Source: Halicephalobus mephisto
Lineage: Eukaryota > Nematoda > Chromadorea > Rhabditida > Panagrolaimidae
Assembly: GCA_009193035.1 (NCBI GenBank)
Contig: SWDT01000092.1
Coordinates: 124,001-188,000, forward strand
Reading direction: 5' to 3'
Length of the DNA stretch: 64,000 nt
Both the position numbers and the translations under genes were made by a program. Under the pieces are notes generated by a model that saw nothing but the letters and a program-made list of their open reading frames with translations, was not told the DNA's origin and did no database searches. Positions 4,153 through 30,772 of the stretch are shown piece by piece (positions within the stretch are counted from its first letter, which is position 1; every line of letters begins with the position of its first letter).

Positions 4153-5752
4153 ATGCAGGGACTAATTAATAGTCACTTCGATATTTCTCCCACTGTGGAT
4201 GGAAATTGGACTTCGATCTGCACGGCTGAAGAGGATGCGAAGATAATTCATTACGACAACAAAAAAAATGATGTAAGCAGAATGTAATCGCAGGTCGGCT
4301 AATTACTGGATAAATTTCAGCTTGCAGATCACGTTATCCCTTGGTTAACACTAGTTCTTTCCATCTTAGGAATCCTTGTAAACACTGGTTTTATCTACTT
4401 TGTTTACGTGGGATTAAAAACCAAAGCCTTGCCTTTTAAGGGTTATTCTTTGTTGTTGAACAGGTCGGCGACGGACTTACTGGTTGCTTTATTGACGACT
4501 ATTTTTGTCGCTTTTCGGAAGTTTGATGAAGTCCATGGGAAGGCTCCCGATCCAGTCAGACAGGGACAGACTGTAAATCAGACTTATCACGTTTTGGAAT
4601 ATGTGGTTCCACATGGAAGGACCGTATTCACCCTTCTCTTGACAATCGATTACTGGGCAGTGGCTGGAGCCTACGGACTCATGGCTTTGTTGCCTTTTCT
4701 GGCTGTTAGATATCCAATTTTCTATCGAACAAGAGTAACAAACAAAGTAATGGGCAAGTGGAATCTGCAATTCTACAATAACGAGTAATTTCAGTGGTAA
4801 TTATGATTGTAAGCTGGTTAGTAGGGGCAGTGTACTCCGCCCTCGTGGTCAGTCTAAGCTCGAACAACGCCTTCAACGTGTTTAACTCAGCAGATGATCT
4901 CATCCAGTGGAGTGTTTCTAAAGAAGACTACGTTTTGTCGATATTTAACCTAATCCTCGTTGCAGCTGCCTTTTTTACTGGGGCTTTCAGTTACACTTCC
5001 ATCATCGTCTACCTCTACACAGCAAGTGCAAAGAAGGGTATGTTACTTCTTCACAAAGCAATGCTCGTGGAATTGGTTTCTAGGTTATGCGGGTGCCCAC
5101 TTGGCTCAAATAGTGAGGATGGGGTTGAATATTGGTGCTTTCGCAGCCACCTGTATTGTCATGGCTGCCTTTGTTTCACTGCCATTATTCCTAAAGTCTC
5201 ATATTGACGACCTCGATGCAATGAATACAGTGAGTCTTTAGCTACTGCAGATTAGAACCACGTTTGAGCTCCGTAGATAAGGCAATCAGATTAGGCCTGC
5301 TATGTCGAACTAAAAATCCTAAAATTCCACGCATCTTGGAAATATTCAACTTTTAGGTTTCTCTGTGTAAAACAGTAATCAATGTCTACGAACTCAGCTA
5401 CATCATGGCCATCTGGACAACTCTGGCGATGACCGGATGGATGTTGAGGATCATCATTGACCCTATCACAAACATCATATTGGATATCCGTTTCCGAGAA
5501 CTGTTGAAGAACAAAGTTTTCAAAAAGGGTATAAACTCAATCAATTACCAGCCTAAGAGGATCAGTGCTCCGAATTTCCTGGCCAGAAACGAATTCATCA
5601 GGAAGTGTGCCGATATGAACGTCATCCCTAAAAGCATTTCATCGCCAAATGGTCATTACTTCCGGTTCAGATCTCCTACAGAAGTCCACGAAAATCAAGA
5701 AGAAAAGCAGAAAAGGGTTATTCACATTAGATTTGATGATTTGGTAATATAA
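4153..5752 (+). CDS. seven-transmembrane receptor, rhodopsin-like, nematode type
   Basis: Five exons join in frame: 4153-4272, 4321-4753, 4795-5037, 5084-5229, 5357-5752, giving about 445 aa. An N-terminal region with NWT and, further on, NQT sequons precedes seven hydrophobic segments. The first starts around WLTLVLSILG; an LLNRSATDLL stretch fits TM2, an RYPIF stretch sits where DRY is usual at the end of TM3, and a DPITN stretch sits where NPxxY is usual in TM7. The basic cytoplasmic tail after TM7 is about 80 aa. The second intron appears to use a GC donor (4754) with a normal AG acceptor; only that choice keeps the frame. I cannot place it in a named receptor family and the ligand is unknown. 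The gene lies between bre-3 and the opposite-strand sqv-3. Confidence 0.8.
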
Positions 5753-5840
5753 TTTAGTACCCAATCTAAGATAAATTATTGCTAGGCACGATAATACCCG
5801 TAACTCGGGAGATCACAGAATCTAAAGAACCAAAGGCAAA

Positions 5841-6842
5841 CTATGTTTTCCATTCTTCGAATGTGCAATAAGGTGTCCACGTCCGATTGCAGATCAACTC
5901 GACATCAACGATAGTCACCGGGACACCTCCAGCTTGAATGACCTTCCTGTCGACAATGTTGTAGACGACGTTGTGGAGTCCGCTCACTCGATCTCGTCTA
6001 TGAGTCATGTTCCTTTGGTTATAGATGTACTTTTGATCTCGTTTCCGTTCGCGATCATCATGGTTGTGAAGGAAAGTAGTTCCACGGCCAGTAGTGAGAT
6101 TGGCTGGTCTCTCAAGATTTGATAAAAGATCTTCGTCTCTGGAAATAAACCCATCACCTAATATATACTTAAACGAGAACAGACCTGAGGCGTAAGTAGA
6201 ACTCATCATCTTCAAGGCCCCAGCCCCAGTACTTGTTCGACATGCCATTAACCCTCTTGAAATCCTTCATCGTCAGCAAGAGAATTCCACCAATGAACTT
6301 TGGATAATCGTATCTATAATGGATTTACTTATAAAACTATTGATAGGAAATACTAACCGTTCTTTAGGGTGATATTCCGGAGCAGCAATGTGTCTAACAA
6401 CGCCCTCACCAGGAAACGAATAACTCAAAGCAGGATTAAGCGGAAGCAAATCCACGTCATGCATCACCATGTAATTGCAACTCAATCTATCTGCTTCATA
6501 CCATCCTACATTGATCAGAGAAGCCCTATTGAACCTATTAGAATCCGTCTGATTAATAATTAGGAAAATGTGGTCCACTCCTTGAGCAAGCAGGAAACTA
6601 TGAAGGTGCGGGGCAAACTGTTGTAATTCCTCCCATCTATCCCTATAAGGCACAACTACGCAGAGAACGTTCTTCTTTACTGGAGGTAAGACTGTGAACC
6701 CGGTTCTGAAGATTTCATATATGAAAACTGAGTTCAAAGACAAAACTTACATTTCGGAAGACTCATGATACAACCAACAGACGTAGAGGAAGAAAATGAC
6801 GACGAAAATAATACTGAGGATTCTTCGGGTAATTCTCCGCAT
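5841..6842 (-). CDS. sqv-3: xylosylprotein beta-1,4-galactosyltransferase (B4GALT7/SQV-3)
   Basis: Four exons on the minus strand join in frame: 6842-6751, 6705-6358, 6313-6185, 6138-5841, giving 288 aa, the usual length for nematode SQV-3. A basic N-terminus followed by a hydrophobic segment (residues about 8-25) marks a type II Golgi protein. Family motifs are clear: VPYRDRWEEL near residue 50, the metal-binding HDVDLLPLN near 113, GGILLL, and the acceptor loop WGWGLEDDEFY. The C-terminal TPYCTF also fits. By family knowledge it transfers the first galactose onto xylose in the tetrasaccharide linker of chondroitin and heparan sulfate proteoglycans. The short 45-nt first intron separates the membrane anchor from the catalytic domain. 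Its start is divergent from vha-1, about 420 nt away. Confidence 0.93.
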
Positions 6843-21677: not shown

Positions 21678-23088
21678 ATGGCATCTATAAATGAGTTCCA
21701 GAATCCTGAACTTGTGATTTTTTTCAACAAGAGCTGGGAGTCATCGAGAATCAAACGTCGATGTGAACTGTTTAACAAGAGGATTAGTCAGGATCGAGAT
21801 AGAGTCAGAGTTCATGGGCATTGTAAGTTCCTTTTTTCTTTTTCTCCATTTTATATGTTATTTGTAGTTTACAACAACATCTACCTTGGGAAGAGAATCT
21901 TCGGACCAGCTAGGAAGCAGGTATTCAAGCATTCTATTGTTGGTGGGATGGAGCGACGATTCGAGATCATAGACAATCAAGTTAACCATCTGCCTTTTAC
22001 CCATGAAGCTTCTGACAAGTATAAAGAGAAATGCAGATCTGAAAGTAAGTTTCGATATGTTGAGAATATGTAATGTCAATCTTTCAACTATCAGGAGTCA
22101 AATGCAGAGATGACACAAGAGTAGTGCTTCAATATCCTCCTGGAGAATCTCATAACTTCATTCATGCCAACAGAGTCTCATCTCCTTTGCTCTTCAATCA
22201 ATTCATCATTACTCAGGCTCCAATGGATAATACGATTGGCGATTTTTGGAGGATGATTTGGCAAGAAGAAGTTCGTTATATTTTCATGGTGATTAGTCGA
22301 AAAGATAGATCTCGATGTGTTCGTTATTGGCCGAGAGAGAAGGGACGAGGAATCGAAGTCTATGGATTGCAGATCATTAACGAAGGTGTTGACGACACCA
22401 AAGACCCTCTCTTCCGAGTGACAACATTGAGTATTATTGGACCAGGGCAGAAGAGGATGGTGGTTGAGCATTGGCAGGGAAATATGAACAATTCTAGCAA
22501 CATCCAAACTCCGTTAAGAATCTTGCAGTTGGCCAGGAACTGTAGTCGTCCTACTGTCATTCATGACCATCTCGGTATCAGTAGAGCAGCGACTTTGATT
22601 GCTGCTGAATTGACTATCTGCAGTCTACTCAAAGGACCTACTACCAAGGTTCGGGTTTTTTCGTTTTTTATATAATCATCAAATTTTAGCATCCAGTTCA
22701 GTGGGCTGTCCACTATCTCCGTTCTTTCCGAGCCTTTGCTGTAGAAACCCCGATGCAGTATATCTTCATTCACAGAATCGTCATCCAATTTATCCGGCCA
22801 TTAGTTGGAGATCCAGAAGGCTTCCAAGAAGACTATCTTCGTTGGTTAGATGAACGTTCTCGTCGTACATTTGTCAGTGATGTCGATTCCGAGATTCTAG
22901 CCTATCGGTTACTCTCCCCACCAATCGATCCCGATTTACTCCCACTTGTCAGAAGAAACGACCGTCCAGAACATAGACGAGAGATTCATGCCTATATCGG
23001 AGAACTCCCACTGCCATTGGACGATACGAAGAACAATGAACCTATATTCCAATTTCCAATGGCTTTCCCAAGGGGTAAACATTATTAG
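21678..23088 (+). CDS. catalytically inactive protein-tyrosine-phosphatase-like protein
   Basis: Four exons join in frame: 21678-21822, 21868-22044, 22095-22648, 22690-23088, about 424 aa. The PTP fold is clear: YINANRV-like FIHANRV, the FIITQAPMDNTIGDFWRM motif, and YIFMVI. The active site is broken: where active enzymes have HCSAGIGR, this protein reads HDHLGISR, so the nucleophilic Cys is Asp (codon 22565-22567). The WPD loop position reads HWQGN, so the general acid Asp is also gone. Nematodes carry many such PTP-like proteins; a binding or scaffold role is inferred. The start is uncertain: an in-frame open stretch precedes 21678 and a 5' exon may exist. It converges on nhl-1, 178 nt apart. 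Confidence 0.82.
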
Positions 23089-23266: not shown

Positions 23267-26200
23267 TTAGAAGATTTGGATTCTGTGGTTCTCGCGGTCC
23301 GAAACAACAATATTGGTATCGACAAGAGCAACCCCTTCGATTCCCTTGAGTTGTCCTGGCCCGACACCCCAATTGCCGAATCCGTGGACGAACTTTCCAT
23401 CAGGAGAGAATATCTGAACTCTGTTGTTTCCACTGTCAGCGACGATGACAAATCCCTAAATATGAATGGAGTGCAATTACACAGGGCATTTATCCTTACC
23501 TGTTCGTCGAGAGCGATTCCCCGTGGAAGTTTCAACTGACCCGTATGGAATCCCTCGACTCCAAAGCTAAGGATCGGTGTTCCATCGTGATCAAAGACAC
23601 AGATCCTGTGATTGGCACTGTCGCTGACGAAGATGTTCTGAGTTCTCCTATGGATAGCAATGAAGAGAGGATGGTTAAACTGACCGAGTCCGTCTCCATT
23701 AGATCCGAATTTGGTCATGAAGTTCCCGTTTTGGTCAAACACTTGGATTCGGTGGTTATCCTGGAAATCCTCATTATTTTAGAGACTAAGAATTATATTT
23801 ACCTTATCACAAACATAAATGAATCCCAGTTCATCTACAGCGACTCCCCAAGGGTTATTGAATTTGCCGTTGGTGTTCCCGAAAGACCCAAATTGACGAA
23901 TAAAGTTACCTTCAAGATCGAAAATTTGAATTCTGTGGTTATATCGATCGGAAACAATGAGTTGCTGCTTATATCGGTTGTAGGTGATTCCTGCACAACT
24001 ATCGAGTTCCCCTTCTTCTGTGCCGTACTTGCCGAAAGAAGTCAAGAGCTTACCACTGAGGTCAAACATGAGAACTCGATGATTACTACTGTCGCAAACG
24101 GCGAATTCTCCCCCGGGGAGCGTGACGATCCCTCTTGGCCAATTCATCTCATTCAGGGCTTCTCCTCTTCTGCCAAACATGACCTTGGGTTTATGTTTGG
24201 AGCTATAGTCGAGTAGAGGAGTATTTAAGAAGGAGGAAGTGCGGGAAAGTCTCCCGACAGATTCTCTGGAAACCTCTCTGTCAGGGACAATCGAGGATCG
24301 TCGACGGAATCGGCTTCGTCGTTGTTCTGTCGATCGACCGGGTTCTGCTTCGTTCGCCGAAGTCGCAGAAGCTGAAGGACTCGATGGGGGATCTCCGGAG
24401 CTGTCTTGTCGCGGAGGTGGGGCGGAACAGTAACGAACAGTGGTAGAATTGTCTAAATTCAATAGTTGTTGAATACCAGAATGAAGACCGGCCGCAGCTG
24501 CTAGGATAGGGTTAGTAACTCGGTCTGTCATCGGGTTAGAAGCAGAGGCGACGTGAGATTCGCCAAGGTCAGGATTGGATTCGGAGCGGTGAAACCGTCC
24601 GCTTGGTGCATTCGCCGTGCAAAGATTCTCACCTGGAAAGTACTCTATAGGGATTGGTTGAGATGATGGAGTAGAAGGAATCTCGATAGAAGATTCGTTA
24701 GTCTGCGCACTGTCTGAGGTCTCAACTGTGCTAATCGTTAGTTTTTTCGACGGGCCAGAACGACAATAGATTCGAAACTTTTGCGTACCAGTTTTCCGGA
24801 CAAAGTCCGTTGTCGCTGAAGTAGAGAGGTCGTTTCGATTAGAAGCTTCTTCATCATCTTCTCCACTAGAAGATACGATACAGAGAGAATGACGCTGCTT
24901 CTGGCGTTGTTCGTGAGCTTGTCGGATGGATTCGACTTTATCATTCAGAATCGGGTCTTCTGTACTCGAAGGTTGACGGGGAAGAGGTGGTTTCTTGTGG
25001 TTGGCAGTGGGCTGTTGCGGCGACGTCGTCGTTGATGACTCCGTCGCCTGTTGTTCGTTTTTTGAATTCGTGGGAGTATTGGAATTCAACGAAGCCAATC
25101 CATTAGCTACTGCACTTAACTCAATGGAAGTCTTTCTTCGTCGAGAATCTCGTCTTCTCATTTTGATTTCTGGTTTGTTGGGTGAGATCCGAGATTCATC
25201 TGTGTTCGAAGCAGAAGTACCAATAGCACTGTCGTCGCTGAATGGTCTACTCCAAGGACTGTTTCCAGGGGAATAACCATTCAAGGCAGGAGAAGTCCTT
25301 CCACTGTCGGTTCCAACTCGTAATCTGTTCCATGTATCGTCTTCAAGCTGGTATCTTCGTCGGAATCTTGAGACACTAGCGTCGTCATCTAGGTTTCGTC
25401 CATGTCTAGAAAATAACCCTATTAACCCTTAACTATTGTGAGAACCTACTTCATAGATCTATCGTCCATATCTCTCTTGCTTGTTCTGTAGGAATCAGAC
25501 TCTAATCCCATTCTTAAGGGTCTCGGTAGGTATTGTTGTTCCAGGGGAATATATCTGCCTGCAAATTGTGGCAAAGCTACAGTCAGTTCTCCAAAATTGG
25601 CAATAGCTGCGGGGAGTTTACTCGCATCGTCGCCAGGAGTGAACCGAATCTTCTTGGAGAAGAATTCCTCACTGTCTGGCTGGAAACTCCTCAGATATTC
25701 CAAGCCGTCGCTGAATACTGCCTTGATCCTCAGTAACTCCTCATCTTTAGCTGTTTGAGTTCCACTGAGTACAGATTCAACCCATATACAGGCATCAGCC
25801 AAGTTATTGCTTTCGACCGTCAATGTATCTCGTAATGTCCTCATCAATCGACTTTCTGTCTGGAGAAATGTATCAACTTCTTGGATGAAGCTTTCTTCCC
25901 GTTTTTTTAACTCGTTGTGGTAGCGGTGGAAGTACTCCTTTACTTCTGTCTTGGTCGTCTCTGCATTCAGTGTGAGTAAGTCTACATTTTTCGTTAGACT
26001 TTCTGAGGCTTCTTTGACTCGGTTCGATAGTCGTCGGACCTACAAGATGACATCACTGACCAGTTGATGATAGTAATTTTTCTTTTTAAAGCTGTCTTTT
26101 TATTTAGTTAATTTCACTGGGAAAACTCGACGAACACCTGTTTTCAGTCAGGAGCCAAGTCAGGTGCTGGACTCGAGAAATCTATTTGCTCAAAATCCCA

Positions 26201-27011
26201 ATAGGTCCTCACCTTGAAGCGGTCACAAGATGATTTCGAAACCGAAGGAAACCCACCTGATTTAGCAATCGACCAAGATCACGTTTGACCATTTCCATAT
26301 GAGCACCCCGACACTCTTTGCAGGCCTTCCTCTCGCAATGATGGCAGATTTCGAGTTCTGCCTTCTCATCACAGATCTTGCACCTCTCCAAGTTGTATCT
26401 AAACAACAAACAAATCAATAAATAGTTGACAAGGGGATCTGATGGGGGCGGAAGATCATCGTCATTGAGCAAAAACGTACTGCTGAGACTGAGTGGGTGA
26501 CGCACTTGATCCATTGAGTGCTTTTTGCTGTAGCTTTACGGACTAAACTTACCGCTGAATGTAAGCCTCCAATTGTTCGGCATTTTCATCTGTTGCTTCT
26601 AGATGAATATCCAAGAACTTTGTCAAAGTGTAGTTTGTCTGGAAGCTCTTTACTCCATCGTATGGAATCTGGTGTTCAGCTCGACATTCAGGGCACTTTA
26701 AATTCCTGTGAACTGAATCAGCATATGAGTCTAAGCAAGGAAGACAGAAGCTGTGATGACAAGGAAGTAATTTTGGCTGTCTAGAAATGAACTGTAATAT
26801 TAGGAAAGTAAAAAATAACTCACTTATATCGGTCCAAGCATATCGCACACGTCAACAGCTGTTCGATTTTCTCAAGAGGATTAACGAAATCACCTGGTCT
26901 CTGGGCCGGGGATGCCCGATTTGGGCTCATACTTAACTTCGCGGGAGCTTCTGGAGCAGTTAATTCCCCCGTAGCATCAATCACAACCACCGTCGGTTCA
27001 ACCGAATCCAT
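23267..27011 (-). CDS. nhl-1: NHL-1-like TRIM-NHL protein (RING, B-box, coiled coil, six NHL repeats)
   Basis: Seven exons join in frame: 27011-26824, 26780-26553, 26398-26257, 26039-25450, 25405-23803, 23760-23500, 23455-23267, about 1066 aa. A RING finger (CAIC...HHSFC...CPEC, residues about 55-97) is split by intron 1. It is followed by a B-box (CKIC...CHHC...CKEC...H), a coiled coil, a long Ser-rich disordered region of about 400 aa, and six NHL repeats with the typical NHR(I/V)xxFD motif that should close a beta-propeller. RING sequence and architecture match C. elegans NHL-1, related to TRIM2/3/32. Family members act as E3 ubiquitin ligases and some bind RNA through the propeller. The last repeat ends two residues after NHRIQ, right at the stop, as expected for a propeller that closes at the C-terminus. 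Confidence 0.93.
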
Positions 27012-28869: not shown

Positions 28870-30772
28870 TCATGGAAATCGGAAATCAAACTGAGGAGGA
28901 TAAGAGAAGAGATTAGGCCGAATTTCCGGAATTCTATCAGCTCTAGCAGAAGTGGGATATCTAAAATTCGGTGGTAGAGATAAATCCATAGAAAATGGAG
29001 ACAATGCCATCGAAGGTCGAAGAATTCTAGATGGTCCAGGAATATCTAAGGGCCGGAACATGTTCATAAAATTATGATTTGATGTCTGCCAGATTTTGTC
29101 CTTCTTTTTTCGATAGAAAGCGACACAGATCTGCTTTGAATGGATTACTTTATTGTTCATATCGCGAATGGCTCTAGCGGCATCATTAGGATTCTCGTAG
29201 CAAACGAATCCGAAACCTTTCGAGAGACCACATTCATTATACATGACCTAAATATTACATTAGTAACTGATATTGAATGAAAACTAACTCTAGAATTAGT
29301 AATTTTTCCAAATTTTTCAAATGTTCTCCGCAACTCGGCATTATCTATGGATTTGTCCAGATTTTTGATATATAAATTGCTATTTTCCCTATTTTCAGCT
29401 TCTTCAGCTAGTTGAGCTTGTCGTTCTGATTTTTTCTGGGCTTTCCCAATATATATCTTATTTTTCGAAATTGGAAGTTGCCGATCGTTGAAGTTCTTGA
29501 TGACGTATTCAGCAGCTTCAGAATTCGAGAAACAAACGAATCCGAAACCTTTGGATTGGCCAAAATTATCGTACATTACTTTGGCACTGATAATTTCACC
29601 AAAGCTCTCAAAGTACTTAAGAAGGCTGTCGTCGGTGACAGAGTCGTTAAGATTATTGATGTACAAGTTAACACTTTGACCTATTTGGGTCTGTCGTTCG
29701 GATTTCTTCTGAGCTACTGCGACGTATAATTTCCTTTTCGAAATCGGAAGTACATATCCATTGAGGTTCTCGATAGCTGCTTCAGCGTCATTGGAATTAG
29801 AAAATGCCACAAACCCGAATCCCTTCGAATGTCCGTTGGAATACCGCATGATTGCGTGACTGACGATCGTTCCATATGTTTCAAAGAGATCAAAAAGTTG
29901 TTTATTATCCAGTTCTTCGCCAAAGTTTTTAACGAAGAGATTCGTGGATTGAGCGGATTTTCCTGTGGCATTGAATGCTGCCATGACTTCCTCCATCTGG
30001 ATTCTGTCCCTTTCCGTGGCATCTCCAAAAAGAGGACAGGATTTAAAACATGAAGGACACTTGCCAGAAGTCTCTTTCCATCCACATTCACAGAAATGAG
30101 AGTAGTCCTCGACGGGTTCTCGACAGATGTAACATTGCTTAGCTCCGCATCTGCATGTCATCTTGTTACATCCTTCTTCCTTCACAAACTGCAATTTGCA
30201 TTTGTGACAAACACGAACGGCGATTTCTGAGAGTTTCGGTTCTAATTTATTCCGTTTATCTTCTTCATCGAGTTTCGAACAAGGGATTTCTTTGTGACGA
30301 TCGTCGTAGATTCTGGGGCAATTTCGACATTGTCTTCTTCCACAAGAGCAATCATAAAAGTCTTCAGTTCGGTCAACGCAGAACCTCATTTGACATCCAG
30401 GGCACGTCACTAGATCGTCCATTTCGGCAGCAACGATGGCTTCATGTTGGAGTCGTTGAGATAAGGCGATATGGATATTTGAATCCAGAAACTTTTCAAA
30501 GCTGTCTCAAAGAGAAAAAATTACGACATGAAATTACAATAAAACTTACTTATGAGAAGAACGTTGTCGCATTCAAGAACGGGACAAGGGAGCCCCACTC
30601 CACCATTTGCAACAGGAGCTTCTGTAGTTGCGGCTTTCGCCAACTCTTTGATGCAATCAATACAAGTTCCGTGAACCTTCTCCGAATCGCCTTTGCTACT
30701 GAAGGGGGAACAGTGCACGACACCATCGTTGACAGAATATAGCATGAAACAAATAGGGCATTTAAACTTCAT
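28870..30772 (-). CDS. fusion of RNF216-type RING-IBR-RING ubiquitin ligase with three PABP-type RRMs
   Basis: Three exons join in frame: 30772-30550, 30505-29289, 29247-28870, about 605 aa. Residues 1 to about 245 form an RBR module of the RNF216/TRIAD3 type: RING1 (CPIC near 5, HGTCIDC near 34), an IBR region (CPGC...CSCGRRQCRNC), then RING2 with VCHKC, GCNKMTCRCG and YDHFC-like YSHFC. The predicted catalytic cysteine, in EEGCNKM, is about residue 187. After a short linker come three tandem RRMs of the cytoplasmic poly(A)-binding protein RRM3/4 type, each with RNP2 (NLFVKNF, NLYINNL, NLYIKNL) and RNP1 (SKGFGFV), and with AQKKSERQ linkers as in PABP. The C-terminal 75 residues are Pro/Phe/Arg-rich, with no MLLE domain. 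The junction lies in the middle of exon 2, without an intron or frame change. A role in ubiquitylation on poly(A) mRNPs is inferred. Confidence 0.9.

What the first reader, a model, noticed from the sequence alone, without database searches (positions are those of the whole stretch)
28870..30772. RNF216-type RBR ubiquitin ligase fused in frame to three PABP-type RRMs
A single continuous exon (30505-29289) runs from the IBR/RING2 part of an RNF216-like ligase into tandem RRMs that look like RRM3/RRM4 of cytoplasmic poly(A)-binding protein, including the AQKKSERQ linkers. The predicted catalytic Cys in GCNKM and all three RNP1/RNP2 pairs are intact, so both halves look functional. RBR ligases that also carry PABP RRMs are not an architecture I know. 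The arrangement suggests a ligase tethered to poly(A) mRNA, able to ubiquitylate translation or decay factors on mRNPs. The absence of MLLE and of RRM1/2 means it would not simply replace PABP.
Basis: partly seen in the sequence, partly recalled or inferred. Interest (0 to 1): 0.93.

Follow-up and report, generated by a model that had tools for sequence, protein, structure and literature searches.

The report
Ubiquitin ligase fused to PABP RNA-binders
A small nematode gene family joins an RNF216-type ubiquitin ligase to RNA-binding domains related to those of poly(A)-binding protein, so it would likely tag proteins that sit on messenger RNA, and a related nematode genus has joined the same kind of ligase to a different RNA-binding domain.

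Summary
The fusion is real. Gene A (window 30772-28870, minus strand, three exons, 605 aa) encodes RING1-IBR-RING2 of RNF216 type, then three RRMs of cytoplasmic PABP type; the junction lies inside one open exon. It is not an assembly join: two more open copies (B, C) lie in tandem on another contig with the same introns, and Halicephalobus sp. NKZ332 and two unnamed ENA contigs carry it too. Catalytic Cys187 (= RNF216 C688) and the post-RING2 Cys site and helix are kept; the RRMs start just after them. RRM1 is PABP RRM3, the middle RRM is an RRM4/RRM3 hybrid as if from unequal crossover, the last is RRM4 with a PABP intron in the same place. NKZ332 has RRM3+RRM4 only. Both halves are constrained between paralogs; the tail hardly is. 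Panagrolaimus relatives of the same ligase clade carry KH domains instead, so RNA-binding modules were likely captured at least twice. Function (an mRNA-tethered, probably K63-type ligase) is inferred; there are no expression, RNA-binding or ligase data here. New variant of a known kind (RNA-binding ubiquitin ligases).

The parts
30550..30772 (-). exon 1: start codon and RING1 (candidate ligands Cys 5, 8, 21, His34, Cys 37, 40, 63, 68)
   Evidence: columns 21, 34, 37, 40, 63, 68 invariant; Cys5 and Cys8 not aligned with the RNF216 rows there
30506..30549 (-). intron 1, 44 nt, GT-AG, same place in copies B and C (43 and 49 nt)
29970..30505 (-). exon 2, first part: IBR, RING2 and post-RING2 Cys site and helix (residues 75-253)
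30168..30170 (-). codon of predicted catalytic Cys187 (GCNKM), aligned with RNF216 C688
   Evidence: C688 named as the active-site Cys in PMC9834252 (passages)
29964..30098 (-). post-RING2 Cys-rich site (Cys 213, 215, 224, 227, 231) and helix, directly before the RRMs
   Evidence: need for an extension after RING2 in RNF216: PMC6411869 (passages)
29748..29939 (-). RRM1, PABP RRM3 type (RNP2 LFVKNF, RNP1 KGFGFVAF)
29475..29666 (-). RRM2, hybrid: N-half PABP RRM4 type, C-half PABP RRM3 type (RNP2 LYINNL, RNP1 KGFGFVCF)
29289..29375 (-). RRM3, first half, PABP RRM4 type (RNP2 LYIKNL)
29248..29288 (-). intron 2, 41 nt, phase 0, at the place where a PABP gene of the same genome (contig C230) has its RRM4 intron
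29128..29247 (-). RRM3, second half, PABP RRM4 type (RNP1 KGFGFVCY)
28870..29127 (-). C-terminal tail (residues 521-605) and stop; poorly conserved

Best explanation
Gene A and its paralogs encode an RBR (RNF216-type) ubiquitin ligase with PABP RRM3/RRM4-type domains joined directly behind it, so the protein is predicted to dock on A-rich or AU-rich mRNA and would ubiquitylate proteins of the bound mRNP. Shown by sequence: the fusion, its conservation, the conserved catalytic Cys and (in A and B) RNP motifs, and constraint on both halves between paralogs. Inferred: RING1 takes E2~ubiquitin, Cys187 carries ubiquitin, probably as K63-type chains as in RNF216, and the RRMs supply substrate choice by RNA tethering (nearby PABP, initiation or decay factors, ribosomal proteins). 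Likely history: a DNA-level capture of a PABP RRM3-RRM4 block (its intron came along) behind a duplicated panagrolaimid RBR gene, then growth from two to three or four RRMs by unequal crossover.
For: Open 605-codon model with canonical splice sites. Two further open copies of the same architecture in this genome, 69% identical over residues 2-404 and 63% over 1-364 of exon 2. Fusion also in Halicephalobus sp. NKZ332 P0001 and unnamed ENA contigs P0002 and P0166. Matches to RNF216 and PABP. Invariant IBR and RING2 ligand columns (Cys129 nearly so) and Cys187 in 15 sequences. Post-RING2 Cys site and helix kept. dN/dS in the RBR 0.13, 0.12, 0.31 and in the RRMs 0.18, 0.22, 0.18 for A/B, A/C, B/C. 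RRM-half assignment; 0 of 2000 residue shuffles reach the hybrid's margin; in 15 test PABPs 79 of 90 halves placed right, with 0 of 60 RRM2/RRM4 halves misplaced. Intron in the last RRM shared with the C230 PABP RRM4. AlphaFold2 model of exon 2, mean pLDDT 86.3; best Foldseek match PABP RRM1-2 with poly(A), 4f02, E 7.8e-18. KH domains on the same ligase clade in Panagrolaimus.
Against: No transcript, protein, RNA-binding or ligase data. Synonymous sites are near saturation (pS 0.38-0.75 in the RBR and RRM segments), so dN/dS is rough, and it could not be computed for two segments (A/C IBR-RING2, B/C RRM3). All four RRMs of copy C depart from the RNP consensus (RNP1 in its RRM1-3, RNP2 in its RRM4), so RNA binding may not be needed in every copy. 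In the RBR tree copy C groups with RBR-only genes (89/83, open fork), so a single RRM capture is not proven. The half-assignment control missed 11 of 30 true RRM3 halves. This genome's C136 PABP gene lacks the RRM4 intron and has one at the matching place of RRM2, so the intron alone does not name the donor RRM. A first AlphaFold2 run with 14 sequences was poor (mean pLDDT 58.1). RING1 was not modelled.
Confidence: 0.62

Rival explanations
1. The RRMs act mainly as protein-binding or dimerising modules: they bring the ligase to PABP partners (such as eIF4G-type factors) rather than to RNA.
For: The closest solved structure, 4f02, is PABP RRM1-2 with both poly(A) and eIF4G; RNP motifs are altered in copy C.
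Against: RNP2/RNP1 aromatic positions are intact in the RRMs of A, B and NKZ332 P0001; the KH fusions of the same clade point to nucleic acid rather than to a PABP-specific partner.
Confidence: 0.2
2. A lineage-specific innate-defence family: the RNA-binding modules mark viral or transposon RNA, and the ligase then signals or destroys the bound RNP.
For: Lineage-specific clade (100/99), tandem copies, gene conversion and a decayed copy next door; human RNF216 is linked to TLR and TRAF3 antiviral signalling (PMC3305615, passages).
Against: No whole-domain sign of positive selection in the RRMs (dN/dS 0.18-0.22); no expression or infection data.
Confidence: 0.12
3. Non-functional or barely used gene products of a duplicating family.
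For: A decayed RBR copy lies next to B (L029 1202-1534); the tail is hardly conserved.
Against: Three full-length open copies, constraint on both halves, and a relative in a second species.
Confidence: 0.06

Closest known systems
RNF216/TRIAD3 (RBR E3 ligase)
   Same: RING1-IBR-RING2 order, catalytic Cys, post-RING2 Cys-rich site and helix
   Different: model starts at RING1 (as in P0001 and P0003), without the long N-terminus; C-terminal RRMs; lies in a clade apart from seven canonical RNF216-type rows, which include this genome's contig C87 gene (100/99)
Cytoplasmic poly(A)-binding protein (PABPC)
   Same: RRM3 and RRM4 sequence, linker AQKKSERQ, RRM4 intron place of the C230 gene
   Different: no RRM1, RRM2 or MLLE; hybrid RRM; ligase in front
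MKRN1 (RNA-binding ubiquitin ligase acting at poly(A), PMC6805484, passages)
   Same: acts at poly(A)/PABP on mRNA: the closest model for function
   Different: RING and CCCH fingers; reaches poly(A) through a PAM2 motif bound to PABPC1, not through RRMs of its own
CNOT4/NOT4 (RING plus RRM; recalled)
   Same: E3 ligase with an RRM
   Different: RING type, not RBR; member of CCR4-NOT (recalled)
Plant DEAH11/DEAH12 (helicase, RRM-like, RBR; architecture recalled; Pfam names RRM_DEAH11 and RBD_DEAH11 appear)
   Same: an RBR with an RRM-like fold in one protein
   Different: DEAH helicase, other RBR subfamily, RRM not PABP-derived (recalled)
KH-RBR proteins of Panagrolaimus (P0121, P0122, P0125, P0139)
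   Same: same RBR clade plus an RNA-binding module
   Different: KH domains, at the N-terminus, so likely a separate capture

Membership tests
RBR E3 ligase, RNF216 subfamily | RING1-IBR-RING2 with conserved zinc ligands | tested here: met
   IBR and RING2 ligand columns invariant or nearly so in 15 sequences, six of eight RING1 candidates invariant; match to 7m4m, E 1e-28
RBR E3 ligase, RNF216 subfamily | catalytic Cys in RING2 | tested here: met
   Cys187 aligned with RNF216 C688
RBR E3 ligase, RNF216 subfamily | post-RING2 Cys-rich site and helix | tested here: met
   residues kept (Cys215 is His in P0130 and P0135), helix in the model; need for the extension from PMC6411869 passages
RBR E3 ligase, RNF216 subfamily | one-to-one orthology with RNF216 | tested here: not met
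   separate clade, 100/99, 27-row tree, midpoint root
RBR E3 ligase, RNF216 subfamily | K63-linked chain synthesis | not testable with these tools
   needs biochemistry
Cytoplasmic PABP | four RRMs in the order 1-2-3-4 | tested here: not met
   RRM3, RRM4/3 hybrid and RRM4 only (RRM1 was not among the references)
Cytoplasmic PABP | C-terminal MLLE domain | tested here: not met
   no such Pfam match at E 0.1 in the full protein
RNA-binding ubiquitin ligases (class of PMC5707401) | ubiquitin ligase domain and RNA-binding domain in one chain | tested here: met
RNA-binding ubiquitin ligases (class of PMC5707401) | RNA binding and ligase activity shown | not testable with these tools
   no assay available
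Plant DEAH11/DEAH12 | DEAH helicase domain | tested here: not met
   no helicase match
Makorin (MKRN1) | CCCH zinc fingers | tested here: not met
   no such match

The most novel reading that the evidence does not exclude
Panagrolaimid nematodes have an RNA-addressed ubiquitin system: one RBR clade whose substrate arm has been swapped repeatedly for RNA-binding modules (one to three KH domains at the N-terminus in Panagrolaimus; PABP RRM3/RRM4 blocks, enlarged by unequal crossover, at the C-terminus in Halicephalobus-like worms), so that RNA sequence decides which RNPs receive ubiquitin.
Probability: 0.33. Interest if true: 0.86.

Novelty: new variant of a known kind. Interest (0 to 1): 0.72.

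Why it matters
Thioester-type (RBR) ligases are mostly thought to find substrates through protein contacts (general knowledge). Here RNA-binding domains sit directly behind the minimal active RNF216-type unit, and related worms carry a different RNA-binding fold on the same ligase clade. That gives a natural, compact, single-chain test of whether RNA sequence alone can direct an RBR ligase, and a system in which poly(A)/PABP biology and ubiquitin signalling could meet without an adaptor. The RRM3 - RRM4/3 - RRM4 series is also a clear record of an RRM array that grew as if by unequal crossover.

Tried and rejected
Assembly or annotation artefact: rejected, because two open paralogs on another contig, NKZ332 and two unnamed ENA contigs carry the same join. 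Retrocopy of PABP as source of the RRMs: disfavoured, because the last RRM keeps an intron at the C230 PABP RRM4 place. Which PABP gene was the donor: not resolved, C136 and C230 types score alike. KH plus RBR in this genome: none of the 37 KH matches lies on a contig with an RBR match; exon-by-exon search with capped candidates, so a lower bound. Fold search of the RBR half: uninformative, RRMs fill both lists; no absence is claimed. Mixed alignment with whole PABPs for folding: PABPs at 9-12% identity to the query, taken as misaligned, not used. First AlphaFold2 job poor. Not in the tree: the RBR pieces on C103, C8, C212, C321, C216 and C188, and P0166 and P0141; 'canon' in my row names for P0128, P0129 and C87 was a guess, and P0128 and P0129 fell in the panagrolaimid clade. 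P0166 and the last RRM of P0002 were not scored by halves. Literature: searches found no paper; some searches listed 9, 2 (of 3), 4, 4 and 5 papers, of which I opened only PMC12203941 (passages); none looked like a report of this fusion. One search gave the RNA-binding ubiquitin ligase papers. Species: not named; the assembly (59.9 Mb, 331 contigs) equals neither the H. mephisto figures in PMC6872716 and PMC12354626 nor NKZ332 in PMC6909384. PF26200 is read as an RNF216-type RBR label because it sits on named RNF216 proteins.

Full report
Observation. On the minus strand of the window, an ATG at 30772 opens an exon to 30550, followed by exon 2 at 30505-29289 and exon 3 at 29247-28870. The splice sites are GT-AG, inferred from sequence, and the 605-residue frame is open. 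Exon 2 matches human RNF216 (7m4m, E 1e-28, residues 3-196 of the exon peptide) and yeast PABP (6r5k, E 1e-59, best stretch 185-369). Pfam finds RRM_1 three times (E 1.4e-57). The held Pfam copy gave no RBR model hit, only a below-cut-off RING match in exon 1, so the ligase half rests, on the alignment and on the precomputed labels of relatives.

It is a family, not a single gene. A search of the same genome with the exon 2 peptide gave 38 matches; the best after the gene itself lie on contig C38, 69% identical over residues 2-404 and 63% over 1-364. Reading C38 shows two open tandem genes: B (L029 2953-4920, 627 aa, three RRMs) and C (L029 5039-7291, 720 aa, four RRMs), with both introns in the same places, the second 41 nt long in all three. 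Further along C38 is gene D, an RBR with a different C-terminus and no RRM match, and before B lies a decayed RBR piece with three stops (L029 1202-1534).

Elsewhere. Three protein searches were run. With the whole protein, 7968 of 7992 scored candidates passed and 120 were listed; two of the 120 are labelled with both domains, P0001 (Halicephalobus sp. NKZ332) and P0002 (ENA). With residues 1-250 only, 22 of 306 candidates passed: one labelled RRM (P0001) and three KH_1 (P0121, P0122, P0125, Panagrolaimus). With a profile of nine relatives, 40 of 7992 scored candidates passed: three labelled RRM (P0001, P0002, P0166) and two KH (P0121, P0139). My own Pfam scans confirm KH_1 in P0121, P0122 and P0125 (E 1.2e-10, 9.6e-10, 6.6e-12), three KH stretches in P0139 (E 4.1e-33) and RRMs in P0166 (E 5.7e-46); P0123 has a partial KH below cut-off. 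By eye, P0002 and P0166 read into the intron at the same place of the last RRM, as expected for genomic contigs.

Ligase half. In an alignment of 15 RNF216-type proteins the IBR and RING2 ligand columns are invariant (Cys129 nearly so), as are Cys187 and six of eight RING1 candidates; Cys5 and Cys8 are not aligned with the RNF216 rows there. Cys187 aligns with RNF216 C688, named as the active-site Cys in PMC9834252 (passages). RNF216 needs an extension after RING2, suggested to hold a third zinc (PMC6411869, passages); the fusion keeps Cys 213, 215, 224, 227 and 231 and the following helix, and the RRMs begin about ten residues later (Cys215 is His in P0130 and P0135). So the join seems to leave the minimal active unit whole.

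RRM half. I cut each RRM after RNP1 and scored the halves against RRM2, RRM3 and RRM4 of three nematode PABPs (RRM1 was not a reference). RRM1 of A, B, C, P0001 and P0002 is RRM3 in both halves. RRM2 of A, B, C and P0002 is RRM4 in its N-half and RRM3 in its C-half. The last RRM of A, B, C and P0001 is RRM4 in both halves (P0001's C-half only just, 40.7 against 35.7 for RRM2). C has two hybrids, the second with a weak C-half call (37.0 against 35.0). P0001 has no hybrid: RRM3 then RRM4. This is the expected product series of unequal crossover in an RRM3-RRM4 tandem. Controls: none of 2000 residue shuffles of the A hybrid C-half reached its margin. In 15 other PABPs 79 of 90 halves were placed right; the 11 misses were all among the 30 RRM3 halves, and none of the 60 RRM2 or RRM4 halves was misplaced. 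So the method errs away from RRM3, not towards it. The intron in the last RRM is phase 0 and sits where the PABP gene on contig C230 has its RRM4 intron, which argues for capture of genomic DNA; the C136 PABP gene lacks that intron and has one at the matching place of RRM2. RNP2 and RNP1 are intact in A, B and P0001; all four RRMs of C depart from the consensus (RNP1 in RRM1-3, RNP2 in RRM4).

Selection. Nei-Gojobori estimates for A/B, A/C and B/C: RBR 0.13, 0.12, 0.31; RRMs 0.18, 0.22, 0.18; tail 0.32, 0.85, 0.95. Synonymous sites are near saturation and two sub-segments could not be computed, so these are rough, but amino-acid identity is 54-67% in the two domain halves against 16-36% in the tail. 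B and C share identical DNA runs of 61, 48 and 103 nt in the IBR-RING2 part, while C is closest to D in RING1: a mosaic, as made by gene conversion or recombination.

Tree. In a tree of 27 RBR sequences (midpoint root), 20 rows (17 from Panagrolaimus, NKZ332 or this genome, 3 from unnamed sources) part from seven canonical RNF216-type rows, among them this genome's C87 gene, with 100/99 support. The five RRM rows and the five KH rows are separated by a 94/87 branch. The KH domains are N-terminal and the RRMs C-terminal, so the simplest reading is two captures. Copy C groups with RBR-only rows (89/83, open), which the mosaic can explain but which leaves a single RRM capture unproven. P0126 is a long branch of unsure place.

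Structure. With 42 sequences AlphaFold2 gave exon 2 a mean pLDDT of 86.3, pTM 0.48: the RBR part, a helix at 162-181 and two complete RRM folds. A first run with 14 sequences gave 58.1. Foldseek's best match is PABP RRM1-2 with poly(A) and eIF4G, 4f02, E 7.8e-18. Both lists are filled by RRMs and do not test the RBR half. RING1 lies in exon 1 and was not modelled.

How it likely works. RING1 would accept E2~ubiquitin, Cys187 would carry ubiquitin, and, as in RNF216 (PMC6411869), K63-type chains are likely; the RRM block would place the enzyme on A-rich or AU-rich mRNA. The best functional model in print is MKRN1, which sits at poly(A) through PABPC1 and ubiquitylates PABPC1 and RPS10 (PMC6805484, passages). 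All of this is inference for the present gene.

Known and new. RNA-binding ubiquitin ligases are a named class, with HECT, RING or RBR domains and CCCH, KH, RRM or K-rich modules (PMC5707401, passages). CNOT4 (RING with RRM) and plant DEAH11/12 (helicase, RRM-like, RBR) are recalled relatives in kind. In the searches (open-licence full texts, judged from listings) I saw no paper with an RNF216-type RBR joined to PABP RRMs or to KH domains. I file it as a new variant of a known kind. DTX3 and DTX3L, with predicted RRM/KH-like folds, ubiquitylate the 3' ends of single-stranded RNA and DNA, and the RBR HOIL-1 makes oxyesters on glucosaccharides (PMC12203941, passages); whether these RRM-RBR proteins could modify RNA itself is open, and I give it only a few per cent.

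Noticed in passing
window about 23593-27011, minus strand: The next gene downstream looks like a TRIM-NHL ligase: RING (PF00097, E 3.6e-8) and NHL repeats (PF01436, E 1.4e-20); B-box and coiled coil by eye only, no gene model built. NHL domains often bind RNA (recalled), so two possible RNA-linked ligases may be neighbours.
   Followed up: partly
L033 about 4908-6346 (contig C38): Gene D, an RBR with the same exon 1/2 structure but a C-terminus that resembles P0003 and P0007 by eye; weak, below-cut-off match to Tri-helical PF24465.
   Followed up: partly
L029 1202-1534: Decayed RBR piece with three in-frame stops just before copy B.
   Followed up: no
L035 and L036 (contig C230): Two very similar PABP-like genes about 75 kb apart, both with frame breaks in the held assembly: decaying copies or sequencing errors.
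   Followed up: no
L029 7598-8224, minus strand: Remnant that reads like a retroelement integrase (by eye) beside copy C.
   Followed up: no
P0004 (NKZ332, 716 aa): RBR annotated in one protein with a hydrophobic stretch and a fibrinogen-like domain (PF00147 label); could be a merged gene model.
   Followed up: no
P0001 (NKZ332), residues 450-663: A second RBR follows the two RRMs in the same model, either an RBR-RRM-RBR protein or two tandem genes merged; the contig is only 5270 bases.
   Followed up: no
window 22064-22675, plus strand: ORF that reads like a protein tyrosine phosphatase domain (by eye).
   Followed up: no
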